Below are positions 1-10,894 of a stretch of 10,894 nt of DNA, in pieces (within the stretch, counting starts at the first letter, position 1; each line of letters begins with the position of its first letter). Position numbers and translations under genes: made by a program. The DNA is taken from the NCBI GenBank assembly GCA_015655225.1, contig JAATFK010000206.1, positions 1-10,894 on the forward strand, written 5' to 3'. The DNA comes from Solirubrobacterales bacterium (lineage in GTDB: Bacteria > Actinomycetota > Thermoleophilia > Solirubrobacterales > Solirubrobacteraceae). The notes beneath the pieces are model-generated. The model was not told the origin of the DNA. It saw nothing but the letters and a program-made list of their open reading frames with translations, and ran no database searches.

Positions 1-1115
1 CCGAGCTGCCCGGCATCGCCGTCGACTTCGTCGAGGGGCTGCACGTCGAGAACGGCCACATGACGCCGTACCTGATCCGCGACCAGGTGCGGATGGAGAC
101 GGTCTTCGAGAACCCGTACATCCTGATGACGACGAGACCGATCACGTCCGTCCAGGACCTGATGCCGGCGCTCGACCAGGTGATGCGCAGCCCGCGGCCG
201 CTCGTGATCCTGGCGGAGAGAATCGACGGCGCCGCGCTCGGCATGATCGTGCAGAACAACCAGCACGGCACGCTGCAGGCGGTCGCCGTGCGCGCGCCCG
301 GCTTCGGCCACCGGCGCGTCGCCTACCTGGAGGACCTCGCCGCCTTCACCGGCGGCCGCGTGATCAGCCCCGAGGCCGGCCTGACGCTCGAGCACGTGAG
401 AGCCGAGACGTTCGGCAGCGCCCGGCGCGTGATCGTGACGGAGGACTCGACCGTCTTCGTCGAGGGCGCCGGCAGCGCCGAGGCGGTCGACGCGCGGATG
501 GCGCAGATCCGCGTCGAGCTCGGCCGCGCCTCGCAGGAGAACGACGTGGACGCGCTCAGAGAGCGGCTCGCGCGGCTCTCCAGCCGGCTGGCGGTGATCC
601 GCGTCGGCGGCGCCACCGACGTCTAGCTGAAGGAGCGGCTCCGGCGGACCGAGGGGTCGCTCGCGGCGACGCGGGCGGCGATGTCGGAGGGGATCGTCCC
701 CGGCGGCGGCACCGCGCTGCTGCGCGCCGAGCGGGCGCTCGACGGGGTCCACCCGGAGGGCGACCGCGGGACCGGCGTCGACGTCGTGCGCCGCGTGCTG
801 AGCCAGCCGCTCTTCTGGATCGCGGCGAACGCGGGCTACGACGGCCAGGCGGTCGTCGACCAGGTCCGCGCGATGGACGACGGCCACGGGCTCGACGCGC
901 TCACGGGCGAGTTCGGCGACCTGTTCGCGGCCGGCGTGATCGATCCCGTGCGGGTCAACCGCCTGAGCCTCCAGCACGCGGCCTCGGTCGCCGCGCTGCT
1001 GCTGACGACGGAGGCGCTCGTGGCGGAGGAGCTGGTGGCGCAGCCGGGGGCGATCATCGCGCCGGGCTTCGGCGACCTCGCCGAGGGCCTCGCGCGCCCG
1101 TCGTCCCCGGTCTGA
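1..1115 (+). pseudogene. groEL: GroEL-type chaperonin paralogue, 5'-truncated by the window and interrupted by an in-frame stop
   Basis: The reading frame is open from base 3 and matches the apical, second intermediate and second equatorial parts of Hsp60. It shows a SPYF-like TPYL, the APGFGHRR segment, the VEGAG segment, EGIVPGGG and [11 protein letters not shown] at 624-626 stands exactly where GroEL reads Glu in its ATEVELKE segment, and the same frame then continues without any shift to TGA at 1113-1115. Counting back from the GGG loop, the codon for the catalytic ATPase residue Asp398 (E. coli numbering, from memory) is GGG (Gly) at 654-656; Asp495 in the IDP motif is kept. The C-terminus lacks the Gly-Met tail and ends PSSPV, which may be normal for this actinobacterial paralogue. 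Bases 681-1115 could be translated alone from ATG 681, but no good ribosome site precedes it. I infer a young pseudogene; a sequencing error at 624 is the main alternative. Confidence is high for the family and moderate for the loss of function. Confidence 0.85.
624..626 (+). other. In-frame TAG nonsense codon in the groEL-like gene
   Basis: The codon lies between the ATDV and LKER segments, where GroEL homologues have Glu. GAG to TAG needs a single base change, and the frame is undisturbed on both sides. No in-frame ATG or GTG occurs until ATG 681, so the downstream half would need readthrough or distant reinitiation. AAGGAG at 630-635 looks like a ribosome site but simply encodes Lys-Glu and has no start codon at the right distance. 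Confidence 0.85.
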
Positions 1116-4883: not shown

Positions 4884-5684
4884 GTGGACGCCGAGCGCAG
4901 ACGGCTCCGCAGCCACGCCTTCGGCGAGGCGGCCGAGCTGTACGACCGCCGCCGCCCCGGCTACCCGCCGGAGCTGCTCGACGACGCGATCGCGACCGCC
5001 GCCGCCAGCGGTCCCGTCGAGCGGGCGCTCGAGGCGGGCGCCGGCACCGGCCGCGCGACGCTCGCGCTCGCCCGGCGCGGGATCCGCGTCGACGCGGTCG
5101 AGCACGACCCGCAGATGGCGGCGGTCGCGCGCGCGGCGGTCGCCGGCCTCGCGGTCGACGTCCACGTCGGCGCCTTCGAGGAGTGGCGCGGCGAGGAGGG
5201 CGCCTACGACCTCGTCTTCTCGGCGCAGGCGTGGCACTGGATCGACCCCGAGCGCGGCCTCGCGGTCGCGCGCCGGGCGCTGCGGCCGGGCGGCGCGATC
5301 GCGCTCTTCTGGAACCTCTCCGAGCGGCGCGAGGATTCGCTGCGCAGGGCCCTCGACGCGGCGTACGAGCCGTGGGCGCCGGAGCTGATCGGGACCTCGA
5401 TCATGAACCACTCCTCCGGCGGGCGGATCGACCCCGTCACGCTCGCGGGCGACGGCTTCGACGATCCGCGCGTGCGCTCCTACCGCTGGAGCCGGAGCTA
5501 CGACGCGGTCGCCTACGGCGAGCTGCTGCAGACCCACTCCGACCACCGCCTGCTCCCGCCCGAGCGGCTCACGGGACTGATCGAGGCGGTGGAGGAGACG
5601 GTCCGCGAGGCCGGCGGCGGCGAGATCGTGCTCGACTACCGCGCCGACCTCGTCACCGCCGTCCGCTCAGACGCCGTCGCCTAG
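4884..5684 (+). CDS. Class I SAM-dependent methyltransferase
   Basis: The 266-residue soluble enzyme of the Methyltransf_11/UbiE-like type starts with the FGEAAELYDRRRPGYP signature (13-28) often seen in this subfamily. SAM-binding motif I is ALEAGAGTGRAT (48-59). The acidic residue after strand 2 is Glu73 in VEHD. Motif II covers YDLVFSAQAWHWID (108-121), and ALRPGGAIALFWN (132-144) is motif III. The C-terminal half, which should define the acceptor substrate, has no feature that I can tie to a substrate, so the methyl acceptor is unknown. The GTG start at 4884 lies 5 bases after the FKBP stop, which favours coupled translation. No strong Shine-Dalgarno is present, only a GAGCGAGG-like stretch. 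The 3' end overlaps the catalase gene by four bases: both stop codons are read from one CTAG at 5681-5684. Family certain, role unknown. Confidence 0.88.
   Translation: MDAERRRLRSHAFGEAAELYDRRRPGYPPELLDDAIATAAASGPVERALEAGAGTGRATLALARRGIRVDAVEHDPQMAAVARAAVAGLAVDVHVGAFEEWRGEEGAYDLVFSAQAWHWIDPERGLAVARRALRPGGAIALFWNLSERREDSLRRALDAAYEPWAPELIGTSIMNHSSGGRIDPVTLAGDGFDDPRVRSYRWSRSYDAVAYGELLQTHSDHRLLPPERLTGLIEAVEETVREAGGGEIVLDYRADLVTAVRSDAVA
5681..5684. other. Shared CTAG stop site of convergent genes
   Basis: TAG at 5682-5684 ends the methyltransferase on the plus strand, and TAG read from 5683 to 5681 ends the catalase on the minus strand. Being self-complementary, CTAG serves both. No hairpin terminator is evident on either side, so the transcripts probably run into each other. 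Confidence 0.8.
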
Positions 5685-6625
5685 TTCGCGACGTCGCCGG
5701 TCACCTTTCTCGGCAGGCCCGCGGCGCTGCGGAGCTTGTCGGCGATCTCTCTCACCTCGGCCGGGTCGGGACCGGGCGCGAAGACCGACGGCTGCGGCGG
5801 CAGGTCGTTCGCGAGCGCGCCCTCGGGGTGCGTCTCCTCGGCGACGAAGAGATCCTCGCCGGTCTCCGGGTGGGGACCGTTGAAGACGGCGCCGATCTCG
5901 AGGAAGTCGCTCGGCGAGAAGCGGTAGAGCTTGAGGTGCTCGCCGCGTCTGATGTGCGGCTGGCACTCGGGGATTCTGTCGGTCGGGATCCGCGGCGAGG
6001 GGAACAGTCTCATCAGGTTCGCGCCGGTCAGGTTCTCCAGGGCGCGGGCGTAGGCGACCTGGTGGACGCCGCCGCGCACGAGCAGGTAGCCGGTCAGCGC
6101 GCGGGCGGCCGGGTGCTCGACCATCTCGTAGACGCGCAGCTTGCCGCTGCGGGCTCCGGTCTCGAGGAAGAAGTTGTGCGTCAGGTCCTCGATCAGGTCG
6201 CCGGAGGAAAAGACGTTGTCGCCCGTCCACGGGTGGCCCATCGAGTCCTGCACGACCGCGCCGGCGCCGCCCGGAGCGAGGTAGTGGTGCGTGTTGCGGG
6301 CGTCTCTGACGCCGGCAAGCCCGTCGCCGGGGCCTCTTCTACCGGTCGGGTCGTTGTCGGCGGTGCCGGTCAGCATCGTGTTGATCGCGGTCGAGACCAG
6401 CTCGATGTGGCCGAACTCCTCCGCCGCGATCGACGCGATCAGGTCGTAGAACGGCCGCGCGCCCTGCCGATTGCGGAAGTTGAACGACTGGTACGTGTAG
6501 TTCATGAAGGTCGACATCTCGCCGAACTTCCCACCCAGCAGCTCCTGGACAGCGGCAGCCCCGTTCGGGTCGGGGTTCGACGGCGGCGGCAGCTCGGTCT
6601 GGAGACGGTCGAGGCGAAGAATCAT
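5681..6625 (-). CDS. Manganese catalase (non-heme, dimanganese)
   Basis: The 314-residue enzyme disproportionates hydrogen peroxide to water and oxygen with a dimanganese centre. All family ligands are seen with the usual spacing: Glu36 in KFGEMST, Glu70 and His73 in AAEEFGH, Glu155 in FFLETGAR and His188 in GGVHQVAY. The conserved YQSFNFRNRQG segment follows the first ligand helix. There is no signal peptide, so it is cytoplasmic, and its length is normal. ATG 6625 is fixed by a perfect AGGAGGAA 7 bases upstream. Eighteen bases before the ATG begins a 15-bp palindrome with the 7-1-7 form of Fur/PerR operators, and the divergent neighbour encodes a Fur-family protein, so peroxide- or metal-dependent repression by that protein is likely (inference). 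It meets the methyltransferase gene tail to tail. The identification is firm. Confidence 0.95.
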   Translation of the reverse strand: MILRLDRLQTELPPPSNPDPNGAAAVQELLGGKFGEMSTFMNYTYQSFNFRNRQGARPFYDLIASIAAEEFGHIELVSTAINTMLTGTADNDPTGRRGPGDGLAGVRDARNTHHYLAPGGAGAVVQDSMGHPWTGDNVFSSGDLIEDLTHNFFLETGARSGKLRVYEMVEHPAARALTGYLLVRGGVHQVAYARALENLTGANLMRLFPSPRIPTDRIPECQPHIRRGEHLKLYRFSPSDFLEIGAVFNGPHPETGEDLFVAEETHPEGALANDLPPQPSVFAPGPDPAEVREIADKLRSAAGLPRKVTGDVAN

Positions 6626-6643: not shown

Positions 6644-6658
6644 TAGGACATTGTCCTA
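6644..6658. promoter_or_regulatory. 7-1-7 palindrome, candidate Fur/PerR-family operator
   Basis: TAGGACA and TGTCCTA form a perfect inverted repeat around a single central T. The 7-1-7 plan is that of PerR and Fur boxes, although the bases differ from the AT-rich Bacillus consensus. It lies in an AT-richer island between the catalase and the divergent Fur-like gene, and is centred 26 bases before the catalase ATG. By position it should chiefly control the catalase, and possibly also the regulator's own gene. Confidence 0.6.
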
Positions 6659-6662
6659 CAAC

Positions 6663-6700
6663 GTGCCCGAGTGCGAGAGGACGAAACACCAATCGGGCAC
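6663..6700. repeat. Spaced 8-bp inverted repeat around the regulator's promoter
   Basis: GTGCCCGA (6663-6670) and TCGGGCAC (6693-6700) are perfect inverted copies with a 22-base spacer, 30 bases centre to centre, about three helical turns. The right arm runs into the predicted -10 of the Fur-alkyltransferase gene. It could be a second operator, or could fold in the catalase mRNA leader if transcription begins upstream. Confidence 0.4.
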
Positions 6701-6709: not shown

Positions 6710-7696
6710 ATGAGCGGCTTCCGTCCCACCGATCCCGGCGACCTGCTGCGCGAGCGGGGCCTGCGCAGCACGCCCCAGCGGCGGGCGATCCTCGGCGTCT
6801 TCCGGGGCGGCTCGACCGAGCACCTGTCGGCCGACGAGGTGCACGCGCACGCGTCGCAGGCGCTCCCCGACCTCAGTCGCGGGACCGTCTACGCGACGCT
6901 CGCCGAGTTCGCCGAGACCGGGCTGATCGCCGCCTTCGGAACCTCCGAGCCGGTCCGCTACGAGACCAACACGAGCCGCCACGCGCACTTCCGCTGCCGC
7001 CTCTGCCGCCGCCTCTTCGACCTCGACGGCGTGCTCCCCGAGCCGGCTGAGGTGGTCGCGCCCGGCTTCGCGGTCGAGCGCGTCGAGACGCGCGTCGAGG
7101 GCGTCTGCGCCGACTGCGCCGACTACGAGGACGGGCTCGTCGCCGGCGCGGCGGCGATCGAGCGCCGCGGCCCGGCGGTCGAGGCGCTCAGCGTGCCGGG
7201 CGTCGCGGTCGCCGAGCTGGACGGCGGCGCGCTCGGCCCGCTGCTGCTCGCGGCGACGCCGGCCGGCGTCGTGCGCCTCGCGTTCGAGCACCACGGCGAC
7301 GTCGCCGCCCTGCGGGCGCGCGCCCGTCGCCGGCACGGCAGCGAGGCGGCGCACGCGCGGCTGACGGAGGCGAGCGAGGCGGTCGCGCGCTACCTCGCCG
7401 GCGCCCCCGGCGCGATCGAGGCGCCGCTCGACTGGGACGTGCTGGGCGCCGCGTCGGACCCCGACGGCCTCGTCCGCTGCGCCGCGATCCCCTACGGCGC
7501 CAGCCGCTCCTACAGCGAGCTGGGAAGCGGACGCCCGGCACGGGCGCTCGGCGAGGCGTTCGGCGCCAACCCGGTGCCGCTGCTGACGCCGTGCCACCGC
7601 GTCACGCGCGGGAGCGAGCTGCCGCGGCCGTTCGTCGGCGGCGAGGAGCGACGCCGCTGGCTGCTCGCGCACGAGCGCGAGCACGCGCAGCGCTGA
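6710..7696 (+). CDS. PerR-like Fur-family regulator fused to Ogt-type O6-alkylguanine-DNA alkyltransferase
   Basis: The single 328-residue frame holds two intact domains. Residues 10-140 are a Fur-family repressor: a winged helix with LSRGTVYATLAEFAETGLI, structural-zinc cysteines 96/99 and 133/136, and a regulatory metal site whose positions match B. subtilis PerR nearly one to one (His38, Glu85 in place of Asp85, His91, His93, Asp104). After a short Ala-rich linker (about 141-163), residues 164-328 form an Ogt/MGMT domain: an N-terminal ribonuclease-H-like part, IPYGASRSYSELG (260-272), arginine finger Arg278, the Asn hinge in GANP, the active site PCHR with Cys295, and the FVGGEERRRWLL tail. 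The usual FQxxVW segment is degenerate. The expected roles are metal- or peroxide-responsive repression and irreversible transfer of alkyl groups from guanine O6 to Cys295. ATG 6710 is chosen over in-frame GTG 6671, which lies upstream of the -10. Domains are firm; the joint function is inference. Confidence 0.9.
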   Translation: MSGFRPTDPGDLLRERGLRSTPQRRAILGVFRGGSTEHLSADEVHAHASQALPDLSRGTVYATLAEFAETGLIAAFGTSEPVRYETNTSRHAHFRCRLCRRLFDLDGVLPEPAEVVAPGFAVERVETRVEGVCADCADYEDGLVAGAAAIERRGPAVEALSVPGVAVAELDGGALGPLLLAATPAGVVRLAFEHHGDVAALRARARRRHGSEAAHARLTEASEAVARYLAGAPGAIEAPLDWDVLGAASDPDGLVRCAAIPYGASRSYSELGSGRPARALGEAFGANPVPLLTPCHRVTRGSELPRPFVGGEERRRWLLAHEREHAQR

Positions 7697-7699
7697 GCG

Positions 7700-8029
7700 T
7701 CAGACGAGGCCCCACTCCTGCCCCAGCGGGGAGGGCGGGATGCGCGTCGAGCCCTTCACCTCCGGGATCACCATCGCGATCTCGTCGATGAAGCAGTAGG
7801 ACCACTCCTCGCCCGGCTCGAGCGAGCGGATCAGCGGGTGGCCGCTCGCGCCGGCGTGCTTCGTCGCGTGCTGTCCGGGTGAGTCGTCGCAGCAGCCGAC
7901 GTGGCCGCATTCGAGGCAGATGCGGAGGTGGAGCCATCTGCCGCCGGCCGCGAGGCAGTCCTCGCAGCCGGCGACCGACTCCGGCAGCTCCGTCAGGTGA
8001 ACGTGGTCGAGGTGCGTGCAGGAGGCCAT
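7700..8029 (-). CDS. UBP-type zinc-finger protein
   Basis: The 109-residue protein is essentially one ZnF-UBP domain. Metal-ligand candidates follow the family order: Cys4 and His6, Cys22/Cys25 in GCEDC, Cys38/Cys41 in ICLECG, Cys46 (or 47), and His54, His58 and His64, followed by HPLIRSL and the aromatic WSYCF pair (76-80). In eukaryotes the fold binds the free C-terminus of ubiquitin. Bacteria lack canonical ubiquitin, so the ligand here is unknown. The C-terminal tail of about 20 residues (from about 90) is polar and Pro-rich. GAAGGGA is placed 8 bases before ATG 8029. The gene follows the kinase gene after 15 bases, making it the last of the three-gene operon, and its 3' end is 3 bases from the convergent fur-ogt stop. 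The family call is firm; the function is inferred only from context, as a partner of the kinase/reductase pair. Confidence 0.88.
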   Translation of the reverse strand: MASCTHLDHVHLTELPESVAGCEDCLAAGGRWLHLRICLECGHVGCCDDSPGQHATKHAGASGHPLIRSLEPGEEWSYCFIDEIAMVIPEVKGSTRIPPSPLGQEWGLV

Positions 8030-8044
8030 GGTCCGATCCCTTCG

Positions 8045-9442
8045 CTAGTTCAACGGCAGTCGGACGTGAAACGTCGTCGCGCCCGGCTTCGAGTCGACCG
8101 TGATCGCGCCGTCATGCCGGACGGTGACGATCCGGTGCGCGGCGTCGAGGCCCAGCCCGGTCCCCTTGCCGACGTCCTTGGTGGTGAAGAACGGGTCGAA
8201 GACGTGGTCGATCACGTCGGTCGGGATGCCGGGGCCGTCGTCGGAGATCTCGACCGCGAGGCACGGCCCCTCGCGCAGCGTCCGCAGCGTGATCGTGCCT
8301 CTCGTGCCGACCGCGTCGATCGCGTTGTCGAGCAGGTTCGTCCAGACCTGGTTCAGCTCCGAGCCGCGGACCGTCACCTTCGGCAGGCTGCGGTCGTAGT
8401 CGCGCACGATCTCGATCTCCGAAGCTTTGAGCTTGTGCCCGAGCACGACGAGCGTCGTCTCCAGCCCCTCGTGGACGTCGACCTCGACGGTGTCGCCGCG
8501 GTCCATGTACGCGTAGCTTCTGACCGCGCCGACGAGGTGGCTGATCCGCTGCGTCGACTCGGTCAGCTCGCCGACGAGCCCGCGCGCGGTCAGCGACGCG
8601 GCGACCCAGTCGAGCGCCGAGCCGGTCGCGGGGCCGGCGGCGGCCGCGACGCGCTCCAGCCAGTCGGCGTCGATCCCGGCGAGCGACAGCGGCTCGGCGA
8701 GCCGCCACGGCTCCGCGACCCCGAGCGCCTCCAGCCGCTCCAGCAGCTCGTCCTCCGCGTCGGCGGCGTCGAGCGCGTCGAGCGGCGTGCGACCGGCCTG
8801 CCGCGTCATCGCCTCCGCCTGCAGGTCGACGAGCCGCTGGGCGTTCTCCAGCGAGGTCCCCGACTCGACGAAGTGGGCGAACGCCCCGATCACGCGCTCC
8901 AGCGCGGTGCCGAGGTCGGCGGCGGCGCGCTGGGCGGCGGCCGCCGGGTTGTTCAGCTCGTGCGCGAGCCCGGCCGCCATCGTGCCGAGCGCGGCCAGCC
9001 GCTCGCGGTTCTGCTCGATCCCGGTGATGCGGCTCATGACCGGCGCGACCTGTCGCATGATGCGGCGGTGGACGGCGGGGTAGCTGAGCATCAGCCCGCG
9101 CGCCGTCTCCGGCTCGATCGACGCGATCCGGCAGCGGCCGGCCGCCTGCATGCGGACGTTGAGCGTGCCCTCGGTGAGCGTCGCGATCGCGCCGACCCAG
9201 GTCGGGGCGGTCATGCGGCCGACCGGCTCGGTGCGGTCGCCCTCGCCGACCAGCATCGTCAGCAGTTCGCCCTCCAGCAGCAGGTGCAGGCCGGTCGACC
9301 CGGTCCCCTGCTCGGAGAGGATCTCGCCCGCCGGCAGCTCGTGCATGCGGGCGGCCCGCGCCCAGGCAGCCAGCTCCCCGTCGTCGAGGTCGTCGAACAG
9401 GTCGACCGGCCGCAGGTCGGCGACGGTCACTTCGGTCGTCAT
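8045..9442 (-). CDS. Soluble histidine kinase with N-terminal cNMP-binding-like domain
   Basis: The 465-residue protein has no membrane helix, so it senses in the cytoplasm. Residues about 12-130 resemble a Crp-type cyclic-nucleotide-binding beta roll (ILSEQGTGSTGLHLLLEGEL), but the phosphate-binding cassette is altered (GAIATLTEGTLNVRMQ, without the usual GE and RxA). The H box is GLAHELNNP with phospho-accepting His161. Between it and the second dimerisation helix (about 290-312) lies an extra helical stretch of some 110 residues. The ATPase domain has the N box NQVWTNLLDNAIDA (364-377), G1 DDGPGIP, F box FDPFFTTK and G2 GKGTGLGL. The start ATG 9442 overlaps the upstream reductase stop as ATGA, so translation is probably coupled. 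The likely phospho-target is the receiver domain of that upstream protein, since no other response regulator is visible. The open frame beyond 9442 is antisense-frame shadow. Confidence 0.9.
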   Translation of the reverse strand: MTTEVTVADLRPVDLFDDLDDGELAAWARAARMHELPAGEILSEQGTGSTGLHLLLEGELLTMLVGEGDRTEPVGRMTAPTWVGAIATLTEGTLNVRMQAAGRCRIASIEPETARGLMLSYPAVHRRIMRQVAPVMSRITGIEQNRERLAALGTMAAGLAHELNNPAAAAQRAAADLGTALERVIGAFAHFVESGTSLENAQRLVDLQAEAMTRQAGRTPLDALDAADAEDELLERLEALGVAEPWRLAEPLSLAGIDADWLERVAAAAGPATGSALDWVAASLTARGLVGELTESTQRISHLVGAVRSYAYMDRGDTVEVDVHEGLETTLVVLGHKLKASEIEIVRDYDRSLPKVTVRGSELNQVWTNLLDNAIDAVGTRGTITLRTLREGPCLAVEISDDGPGIPTDVIDHVFDPFFTTKDVGKGTGLGLDAAHRIVTVRHDGAITVDSKPGATTFHVRLPLN

Positions 9443-10894
9443 ACGCCTTCCAGGTACTCGTGAATCAGCGAGACCGACATCGAGCCCTCGCCGACGGCGC
9501 TCGCGACGCGCTTGATCGAGCGGGCGCGCACGTCGCCGGCGACGAACACGCCGGGGACGCTCGTCTCCAGCAGGAAGGGGTCGCGGGGGAGCGGCCAGAC
9601 CTCGGCGGGCACGTCGGCGCCGGAGAGGATGAAGCCCCTCTCGTCGCGCGCGACGACGTGGTCGAGCCAGTCGGTGCGCGGCGCCGCGCCGATGAAGACG
9701 AAGCAGGCGTCGACGTCCTCGACCGTCTCGCTGCCGTCGGCGTCGCGGATCCGCAGCCGGTGCAGGCGGGGCGCGATCCCGTCGCTCTCGCCCTCCGCCG
9801 CGACCGCCTCGCTGCCGGTCCGCACGTCGATGTTCGGGAGTCTGGAGATCTGCTCGATCAGGTACTGCGACATCGATCTCTGCAGCGGGCTGCGCACGAG
9901 CATCGTCACCTTCGACGCGTAGCTGCTGAAGTAGACCGCCGCCTGGCCGGCCGAGTTGGCGCCGCCGATCACGACGACGTGCTGATCGGCGCACGAGCGC
10001 GCCTCGGTCATCGCGGCGCCGTAGTAGATGCCCGAGCCGGTGCGCTCCTGGAAGCCGGGCGCGGTCATCTGGCGGTAGGCGACGCCGGAGGCGATCAGGA
10101 CCGTGTTGGCGCTCAGCGAGCCGCCGCCGCTGAGGCGCACGAAGCGCCCGGCGCCGTGGACCTCCAGCCCGACCGCCTCCTGGACCGACAGCAGCTCGGC
10201 GCCGAGCCGGCGCGCCTGGTCGGTCGCGCGGCGCGCGAGGTCGGAGCCGCTGAGGCCGGTGGGGAAGCCGAGGTAGTTCTCGATCCGGCTCGACTGGCCG
10301 GCCTGGCCGCCGGCCGCGTCGGACTCGATCATCACGGTGCGCAGTCCCTCGGAGGCGCCGTAGACGGCGGCCGCGAGCCCGGCCGGGCCGCCGCCGACGA
10401 TCACGAGGTCGTAGTGGTCCTGCTGGGGCTGGCTCGCGATCCCGAGCCGCTCGGCCAGCTCCAGGACGGTCGGGCGCTCCAGGACGCTGCCATCCTCCAG
10501 CAGCACGACCGGCAGGCGGTCGGCGTCGACGCCGGCGATCCGCAGCAGCTCGCGGGCCTCGCCGTCGCGCTCGACGTCGAGCCAGCGGCCCGGGACGCGG
10601 TTGCGGGCGAGGAAGTCGCGCAGCTCGTGGGTCTCCTTCGAGAAGCGATGGCCGAGGATGCGGGCGCCGCCGGCCTCGAGCGCGGCGCCGGAGTCCCAGG
10701 CGGTCAGCAGGTCCTCCAGGACCGGGAAGAGCTGCTCCTCGGGCGGGTCCCACGGCTTCAGCAGGTAGTAGTCGAGGGCCGCCTCGTTGATCGCGGCGAT
10801 CGCGGCGCTCGTGTCGGCGTAGGCGGTCAGCAGGACGCGCTTGGCCTCGGGGACGAGCTTGCGGGCCTCGACCAGGTACTCGGTCCCGGCCATC
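9439..10894 (-). CDS. Receiver domain fused to FAD/NAD(P)H thioredoxin-reductase-like oxidoreductase (5' end outside window)
   Basis: The last 484 or so residues are visible; positions count from Met at 10893, which is not the true start. Residues 1-65 are the second half of a response-regulator receiver (conserved Thr23 in LLTAY, Lys46 in LLKPW); its phospho-Asp lies beyond the edge. Residues 78-152 look like a thioredoxin/glutaredoxin fold without cysteines (FSKET where CxxC would be). Residues 161-275 bind FAD (VIVGGGPAGLAAA, GGQAGQSSRIENY), 305-400 bind NAD(P)H (VIGGANSAGQAA), and 441-484 close the FAD site (GVFVAGDVR). The thioredoxin-reductase CATC is replaced: the YxATC stretch reads YGAAMTE, and only two cysteines, 301 and 397, occur. 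It is therefore probably not a true thioredoxin reductase despite the usual database name for this architecture. It is coupled to the kinase gene by a 4-base overlap. Confidence 0.9.
   Translation of the reverse strand, partial: MAGTEYLVEARKLVPEAKRVLLTAYADTSAAIAAINEAALDYYLLKPWDPPEEQLFPVLEDLLTAWDSGAALEAGGARILGHRFSKETHELRDFLARNRVPGRWLDVERDGEARELLRIAGVDADRLPVVLLEDGSVLERPTVLELAERLGIASQPQQDHYDLVIVGGGPAGLAAAVYGASEGLRTVMIESDAAGGQAGQSSRIENYLGFPTGLSGSDLARRATDQARRLGAELLSVQEAVGLEVHGAGRFVRLSGGGSLSANTVLIASGVAYRQMTAPGFQERTGSGIYYGAAMTEARSCADQHVVVIGGANSAGQAAVYFSSYASKVTMLVRSPLQRSMSQYLIEQISRLPNIDVRTGSEAVAAEGESDGIAPRLHRLRIRDADGSETVEDVDACFVFIGAAPRTDWLDHVVARDERGFILSGADVPAEVWPLPRDPFLLETSVPGVFVAGDVRARSIKRVASAVGEGSMSVSLIHEYLEGV

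What the first reader, a model, noticed from the sequence alone, without database searches (positions are those of the whole stretch)
6710..7696. One polypeptide joins a PerR-like Fur repressor to an O6-alkylguanine-DNA alkyltransferase
Both domains look complete in one uninterrupted frame: Cys4 structural zinc and His/Glu/Asp regulatory site in the Fur half, PCHR active site, arginine finger and Asn hinge in the Ogt half. In E. coli Ada, alkyl transfer turns a repair protein into a regulator; here a peroxide/metal-sensing repressor of a different family is tied to a suicide alkyltransferase. Such a protein could link oxidative and alkylation stress, for instance if methylation of Cys295 changes operator binding, or if the Fur half only targets repair to DNA. 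The fusion is seen directly; the coupling is speculation. I do not know of a characterised example.
Basis: partly seen in the sequence, partly recalled or inferred. Interest (0 to 1): 0.85.

Follow-up and report, generated by a model that had tools for sequence, protein, structure and literature searches.

The report
Catalase repressor fused to alkyltransferase
A soil bacterium makes one protein that joins a peroxide-sensor-type gene repressor to a DNA-alkylation repair domain, beside a catalase gene that it probably controls, and related soil bacteria encode the same unusual combination.

Summary
The fusion is real: one 328-residue frame with a FUR domain and an O6-alkylguanine-DNA alkyltransferase (AGT/Ogt) C-terminal domain. 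It is a conserved family: all 240 rows listed by two protein searches (window protein included) carry both domains. Six of 146 genomes of its family encode it, always beside Mn-catalase, divergent in 5 of 6. A 7-1-7 palindrome of Fur-box geometry lies between the genes (6644-6658). Its core (two variants) lies upstream of Mn-catalase at 5 of 6 fusion loci, at all 3 examined loci of genomes with the closest unfused Fur relative, and at 0 of 22 others. So the Fur half is most likely a local PerR-like repressor of Mn-catalase. [quoted passage not shown]). It therefore kept alkyl-acceptor chemistry while its own DNA docking changed. Whether alkylation of Cys295 alters repression is inference. I found no published description in the searches made.

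The parts
6710..7696 (+). Fur-AGT fusion gene, 328 aa plus stop
   Evidence: open frame; FUR and PF01035 matches; TIGR00589 ogt 46.8 bits against cut-off 46.4
6710..7129 (+). PerR-like Fur half (residues 1-140): winged helix, H38/E85/H91/H93/D104 site, CxxC 96-99 and 133-136
   Evidence: best solved-structure match 2fe3, peroxide operon regulator, E 4.4e-14; residue counts in 242 fusions
7118..7228 (+). Linker (residues 137-173) with conserved Y139, G142, L143
   Evidence: Y139 231, G142 223, L143 240 of 242; C136-G176 distance mostly 34-41 residues
7229..7687 (+). AGT/Ogt half (residues 174-326)
   Evidence: PF01035 at 258-323; alignment with free-standing Ogts
7511..7570 (+). Shortened AGT helix-turn-helix, Tyr268 to Asn287, with Arg278 at the arginine-finger position
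7589..7600 (+). PCHR active-site motif, Cys295 codon at 7592-7594
   Evidence: C, H, R 242 of 242
6644..6658 (.). Palindrome TAGGACA-T-TGTCCTA, candidate Fur-type operator
   Evidence: perfect 7-1-7 inverted repeat; 11 of 1000 shuffles as good; core AGGACANTGTCCT once exactly in the genome; comparative footprint
6664..6687 (-). GTTT-N15-GGGCA, possible SigB/SigF-type promoter of the Mn-catalase gene
   Evidence: pattern found at 3 of 6 fusion loci, 3 of 3 loci with the unfused relative, 1 of 22 others; the sigma-factor reading is recalled, not tested
5681..6625 (-). Mn-catalase gene, divergent from the fusion
   Evidence: PF05067 E 2.8e-62

Best explanation
A PerR-like Fur repressor and an AGT domain were joined once in the ancestry of this protein family. 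The Fur half dimerises around a Cys4 zinc, carries a regulatory metal at H38/E85/H91/H93/D104, and represses the divergent Mn-catalase gene by binding a palindrome about 29 bases before its start codon; peroxide oxidation or metal loss lifts repression. The AGT half keeps a working alkyl-acceptor cysteine (C295 with H296 and E322, Y268 and N287), but its own minor-groove DNA-binding element is shortened and variable, so it either repairs O6-alkylguanine with changed docking, helped by the Fur half, or reacts with small alkyl donors. Shown: the fusion, its conservation, the residues, the synteny and the palindrome. Inferred: operator function, peroxide response, transferase activity. My odds for the parts: Fur half controls Mn-catalase through this site 0.8; C295 accepts alkyl groups 0.75; a functional effect of C295 alkylation on repression 0.3.
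For: Fusion and conservation. Mn-catalase adjacent at 6 of 6 genome loci, while only 38 of 146 family genomes have a Mn-catalase match. Motif [ACG]GAC-N3-GTC[CT] within 60 bases before the Mn-catalase start: 5 of 6 fusion loci and 3 of 25 loci without fusion. Those three genomes (G777, G379, G780) hold an unfused Fur whose best matches are the fusion Fur halves; in all 146 family genomes this Fur occurs only in these three and G779 (which has no Mn-catalase match), followed by the six fusions at 93-119 bits and others at 79 bits or less. Tree: fusion Fur halves one group (SH-aLRT 99), joined with the unfused three (89). Exact core unique in the genome. D104 241 of 242 is the PerR-type residue; N61/D104 criteria from passages of PMC8638851. 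AGT catalytic residues invariant. Two free-standing AGT-like genes also exist in the genome, so the fusion is not the only candidate for bulk repair.
Against: No binding or activity data. The palindrome is weak by itself at two loci: L051 and L052 were matched by 654 and 601 of 1000 shuffles at arm 7, and L051 also fails at arm 13. At L053 it is not within 60 bases of Mn-catalase; motif-like sites lie before a sigma-factor gene and further upstream. The family lacks two PerR marks: position 62 is Ala in 227 of 242 instead of Asn, and the site has Glu85 instead of the Asp of B. subtilis PerR. NCBIfam PerR models are far below cut-off (61.6 of 200 bits). Loci of 10 of 41 Mn-catalase matches were not examined.
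Confidence: 0.6

Rival explanations
1. Suicide repressor: C295 is an alkylation sensor. When it is alkylated, the AGT half becomes unstable or changes shape, the Fur half lets go of the operator, and catalase and the fusion itself are made. The AGT half no longer needs to be an efficient repair enzyme.
For: Catalytic residues invariant while the DNA-reading part drifts: in fusions mean column entropy is 1.95 bits in the helix-turn-helix against 1.55 for the AGT half, in free-standing Ogts 0.50 against 0.69. At least 28 changes between Arg and not-Arg at position 278 on the tree. 26 of 242 have neither Arg nor Lys at 278 or 280. Conserved linker residues. Alkylated Ogt shows a destabilised active-site loop (passage of PMC7216122).
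Against: Of 102 proteins without Arg278, 71 have Arg280, which might serve as finger in the shorter motif. The window protein has Arg278. Tyr268 and Asn287, which belong to base flipping and the hinge, stay conserved. No evidence at all on binding after alkylation.
Confidence: 0.25
2. Two independent activities in one chain: peroxide releases the Fur half and so raises both catalase and an ordinary O6-alkylguanine repair enzyme. The fusion only makes them co-regulated.
For: All catalytic AGT residues and Tyr/Asn kept; Arg278 present in the window protein; palindrome lies between both genes.
Against: Shortened helix-turn-helix in 241 of 242 (17-19 residues; one has 20) and variable Arg position, unlike free-standing Ogts (27 of 27 diverse ones have Arg). 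Two other AGT-like genes in the genome. Whether the palindrome also controls the fusion gene is untested.
Confidence: 0.35
3. The palindrome belongs to another regulator or is part of the promoter, and the Fur half regulates other genes or none.
For: In three genomes the motif is present without an adjacent fusion; a GTTT-N14-16-GG promoter-like pattern accompanies the motif at 6 loci.
Against: Those three genomes hold the closest unfused relative of the Fur half; 0 of 22 other Mn-catalase loci have the motif; 7-1-7 geometry is typical of Fur-family sites (recalled).
Confidence: 0.15
4. Annotation or assembly artefact (two genes joined by a lost stop).
For: Draft metagenome-type assembly, 729 contigs, 77% complete; the same window holds a broken groEL frame.
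Against: 240 listed rows and six genomes show the same architecture.
Confidence: 0.01

Closest known systems
PerR / Fur family (B. subtilis PerR, 2fe3)
   Same: Fold by sequence, Cys4 zinc motifs, four of five regulatory ligands identical including D104; neighbour is a peroxide-removing enzyme.
   Different: AGT domain fused at the C-terminus; Glu85 for Asp85; Ala62 for the Asn that marks PerR box recognition; candidate site TAGGACA-N-TGTCCTA instead of the AT-rich PerR or Fur boxes (the box sequences are recalled).
Ogt / MGMT (AGT family)
   Same: PCHRV, Tyr, Asn hinge, Glu of the catalytic set; TIGR00589 just above cut-off.
   Different: Helix-turn-helix shorter by four residues; arginine-finger position variable in the family; fused to a repressor.
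E. coli Ada
   Same: Regulator and O6-alkylguanine alkyltransferase in one protein (works-like resemblance).
   Different: Different regulator family. No Ada zinc domain is matched in the protein, and PF02805 was not found in this genome, though it was in two of the six fusion genomes.
Other AGT fusions: AGTendoV of Ferroplasma, C. elegans AGT-2
   Same: AGT C-terminal part joined to another function (passages of PMC10779285).
   Different: Partners are an endonuclease or a histone-like region. The words Fur, PerR and ferric do not occur in that review's main text.

Membership tests
Fur superfamily | FUR domain above the curated cut-off | tested here: met
   67.6 bits against 23.1
Fur superfamily | two CxxC structural zinc motifs | tested here: met
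   C96, C133, C136 242 of 242, C99 241 of 242
PerR | Asp at position 104 (peroxide sensitivity) | tested here: met
   D 241 of 242; criterion from PMC8638851 passages
PerR | Asn at position 61 of helix H4 | tested here: not met
   equivalent position 62 is Ala 227, Ser 14, Thr 1 of 242; placed by eye on the alignment
PerR | NCBIfam PerR equivalog cut-off | tested here: not met
   61.6 bits against 200; these models are lineage-specific
PerR | iron-catalysed histidine oxidation by H2O2 | not testable with these tools
   needs purified protein
AGT (Ogt/MGMT) | PCHR with nucleophilic Cys, activating His and Glu | tested here: met
   C, H, R 242 of 242; E322 238, D 3, T 1
AGT (Ogt/MGMT) | helix-turn-helix of usual length with arginine finger | tested here: inconclusive
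   Arg278 present in the window protein, but the motif is 18 residues against 22 (20 in two of 27), and R278 in 140 of 242 family members
AGT (Ogt/MGMT) | alkyl transfer from O6-alkylguanine | not testable with these tools
   needs assay
ATL proteins | Trp or other residue in place of the Cys | tested here: not met
   Cys in 242 of 242
Ada | N-terminal Ada zinc domain and AraC-type helix-turn-helix | tested here: not met
   only FUR and PF01035 matched

The most novel reading that the evidence does not exclude
An alkylation-sensing suicide repressor: a PerR-type catalase repressor has taken up an AGT domain whose DNA-reading part has changed while its alkyl-acceptor centre is under full constraint, so that a single alkylation of Cys295, perhaps by small donors and not only by DNA, irreversibly switches an oxidative-stress gene. 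This would be an Ada-like logic evolved independently in the Fur family, merging peroxide and alkylation inputs in one polypeptide.
Probability: 0.25. Interest if true: 0.92.

Novelty: new variant of a known kind. Interest (0 to 1): 0.74.

Why it matters
Regulator-plus-alkyltransferase proteins are known to me mainly from Ada (recalled). A second, unrelated construction in a peroxide-sensor family, conserved across many soil actinobacterial sequences and tied to one operator and one catalase, offers a testable system in which one reactive cysteine may report alkylation to an oxidative-stress gene. The contrast between an invariant active site and a drifting DNA-reading motif is itself a question about how AGTs can work, directly testable with benzylguanine labelling against DNA repair assays.

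Tried and rejected
Artefact of assembly: rejected because of the homologues. A wider regulon: one-mismatch matches of AGGACANTGTCCT in 12 genomes were near control counts in most (G000 5 against 2, G285 8 against 8, G331 4 against 5); of the ten stretches read, the extra hits I looked at lie mostly inside frames, so no second target is claimed. The one in G000:C696 lies about 66 bases upstream of a small frame and remains open. The exact match in G780 lies inside a gene frame. Plasmids: 107 records matched, 0 covering 80% of the protein. Viral contigs: 26 pattern matches, no relative. Phylum sample: only the own genome, 1 of 396. Arginine finger 'lost': softened after finding Arg280 in 71 of the 102 without Arg278. 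Second inverted repeat 6663-6673/6690-6700: not pursued. Literature: searches found 0 papers; one search was swamped by words beginning with 'perr' and tells nothing; two searches listed PMC11164402, which I did not open. Nothing described this fusion in what I saw; that is limited to this open-access library.

Full report
The thing itself. Window 6710-7693 encodes 328 residues in one frame with a stop at 7694-7696. Pfam places FUR at 15-105 and the AGT C-terminal domain PF01035 at 258-323, both above their cut-offs. Against solved structures the best match of the first half is the B. subtilis-type peroxide operon regulator (2fe3, E 4.4e-14, residues 11-140), and of the second half an Ogt (4wxc, E 4e-10, residues 227-326). 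NCBIfam reaches the ogt superfamily model just over its cut-off (46.8 against 46.4 bits) and no Fur or PerR equivalog at its cut-off.

A family, not an accident. Two searches of 5.8 billion proteins gave 776 and 902 matches at E 1e-3 among the 8000 candidates scored in each; the 120 best of each are listed, and all 240 rows (one is the window protein) carry PF01475 and PF01035. The unlisted matches were not inspected. Where a source names an organism it is Conexibacter, Baekduia or Thermoleophilaceae; JGI pipelines already write double names such as Fe2+ or Zn2+ uptake regulation protein/O6-methylguanine-DNA--protein-cysteine methyltransferase. In held genomes the full fusion is in 6 of 146 of the family (E 1e-40), 5 of 399 sampled from the class, all in the same family (E 1e-45, query P0029), and 1 of 396 sampled from the phylum, the own genome. 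Many of the metagenomic fusions, about 58% identical to ours, therefore come from lineages not held here.

Residues. In 242 fusions (the 240 plus two from genome loci) H38 241, E85 241, H91 and H93 242, D104 241, C96, C133 and C136 242, C99 241; in the AGT half Y268 241, N287 242, C295, H296 and R297 242, E322 238 plus 3 Asp. D104 is the residue that makes Fur-type proteins peroxide-sensitive, and Asn61 in helix H4 marks PerR (passages of PMC8638851); the position equivalent to Asn61 is Ala in 227 of 242 here, and the Asp85 ligand is Glu. So this is PerR-like, not PerR by all marks.

The changed AGT half. Between Tyr268 and Asn287 fusions have 18 residues in 235 of 242 (17 in 5, 19 and 20 in one each); the 120 closest relatives of a free-standing Ogt of the same genome have 22 in 120 of 120, and 27 diverse free-standing Ogts taken from 30 loci have 22 in 25 and 20 in 2. 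A regular-expression count without alignment gave the same picture, with 4 fusions and 1 free-standing protein unmatched and 2 fusions at 24. The residue nine before the hinge Asn, the arginine finger, is Arg in 120 of 120 and 27 of 27 free-standing proteins, but in 140 of 242 fusions (His 36, Ala 13, Tyr 11, Gly 10 and others) with at least 28 changes on a tree made without that stretch. Against a simple loss: 71 of the 102 without Arg278 have Arg280; 26 have neither Arg nor Lys at either place. Column entropy runs the other way from free-standing Ogts: 1.95 bits in this stretch against 1.55 over the AGT half in fusions, 0.50 against 0.69 in the free-standing set, while the active-site stretch is conserved in both (0.63 and 0.19). 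That free-standing set is closely related (mostly 74-84% identical), so the 27 diverse ones are the better control. A review passage calls the finger highly conserved and important for base flipping (PMC10779285). Fusion-specific conserved residues are H195, D197, R208, G210, A214, L271, G285, G301 and V309.

Neighbourhood. The Mn-catalase gene (5681-6625, minus; PF05067 E 2.8e-62) starts 84 bases from the fusion and points away. Mn-catalase is adjacent in all six genome loci: divergent in the window, L050, L051, L052 and L054; at L053 it lies downstream on the same strand behind a sigma-70-family gene. Mn-catalase matches exist in 38 of 146 family genomes, so the pairing is not simply a common neighbourhood. 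Only L050 shares the further neighbours of the window (zf-UBP protein, kinase, reductase).

Candidate operator. 6644-6658 reads TAGGACA T TGTCCTA, a perfect 7-1-7 inverted repeat; 11 of 1000 dinucleotide shuffles of the 90-base region do as well. At the other divergent loci a related palindrome has its centre 26-29 bases before the Mn-catalase start (L051, L052 by their arm-7 site): L050 98 and 4 of 1000 (arms of 7 and 13), L054 87 and 1, L052 601 and 9, L051 654 and 327 (best arm-13 site elsewhere), so single-locus significance is good at three, mixed at one and absent at L051. The comparative test is stronger. Of 31 Mn-catalase loci read (30 held plus L052; 10 of 41 matches not read), the core [ACG]GAC-N3-GTC[CT] lies in the last 60 bases before the start at 5 of 6 fusion loci, and at 3 of 25 others. 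The exception is L053, where motif-like sites lie before the sigma gene and further from Mn-catalase. The exact core AGGACANTGTCCT occurs once in the window's genome, at this place, in a 77%-complete assembly.

An informative exception. The three non-fusion loci with the motif are from G777, G379 and G780. These genomes hold an unfused Fur, beside uvrC, 45% identical to the Fur half of G400 over the whole stretch (46-50% in the best match). Over all 146 family genomes this Fur is found at 83% or more in these three and in G779, which has no Mn-catalase match; next come the six fusions (93-119 bits), then others at 79 bits or less. In a tree of 28 unfused Furs (of 31 loci given) and 16 fusion Fur halves the fusions are one group (SH-aLRT 99) and join the unfused three (89); the root is only a midpoint and the search was quick. 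The unfused sequences read Asn at the H4 position and Asp at the ligand position, as PerR does (by eye). So the motif tracks this Fur clade, fused or not, which argues that the Fur half reads the palindrome and that the AGT was added later. The loci are few and related, so this is support and not proof.

Mechanism. Most likely the Fur half is a local repressor of Mn-catalase answering peroxide or metal, and the AGT half is a catalytically competent alkyl acceptor with altered DNA docking. The genome has two further AGT-like genes and two further Furs, and no Ada zinc domain was found in it, so the fusion looks specialised. Whether it repairs, senses, or both is open; I give 0.25 to a true alkylation switch.

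Novelty. Known AGT fusions in the review passages seen are with endonuclease V and a histone-like region; Fur, PerR and ferric do not occur in that main text. Searches found no paper describing a Fur-AGT protein; one search was uninformative. The architecture is visible in automatic annotation, so what is new is the recognition of the family, its operator link and its changed AGT.

Noticed in passing
window 3-1115: groEL-like frame interrupted by an in-frame stop at 624-626; a real pseudogene or a sequence error in this draft assembly.
   Followed up: partly
window 8045-9463 and 9439-10893, minus strand: A cyclic-nucleotide-binding plus HATPase sensor kinase overlapping a thioredoxin-reductase-like protein that runs off the window; both conserved beside the fusion at L050 only.
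   Followed up: no
window 7700-8029, minus strand: Small free-standing zf-UBP protein tail to tail with the fusion; also at L050.
   Followed up: no
L053 8216-9004: Sigma-70-family gene (regions 2, 3, 4) between the fusion and Mn-catalase, with a motif-like site just before its start.
   Followed up: partly
L139, L140, L141: Unfused PerR-like Fur divergent from uvrC in three genomes, the nearest unfused relative of the fusion's Fur half.
   Followed up: yes
L055 5356-7128, minus strand: Another Fur-family gene of the same genome lies directly upstream of a Dyp-type peroxidase gene.
   Followed up: no
window 6664-6687, minus strand: GTTT-N15-GGGCA promoter-like pattern before Mn-catalase, shared with several loci that carry the palindrome.
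   Followed up: partly
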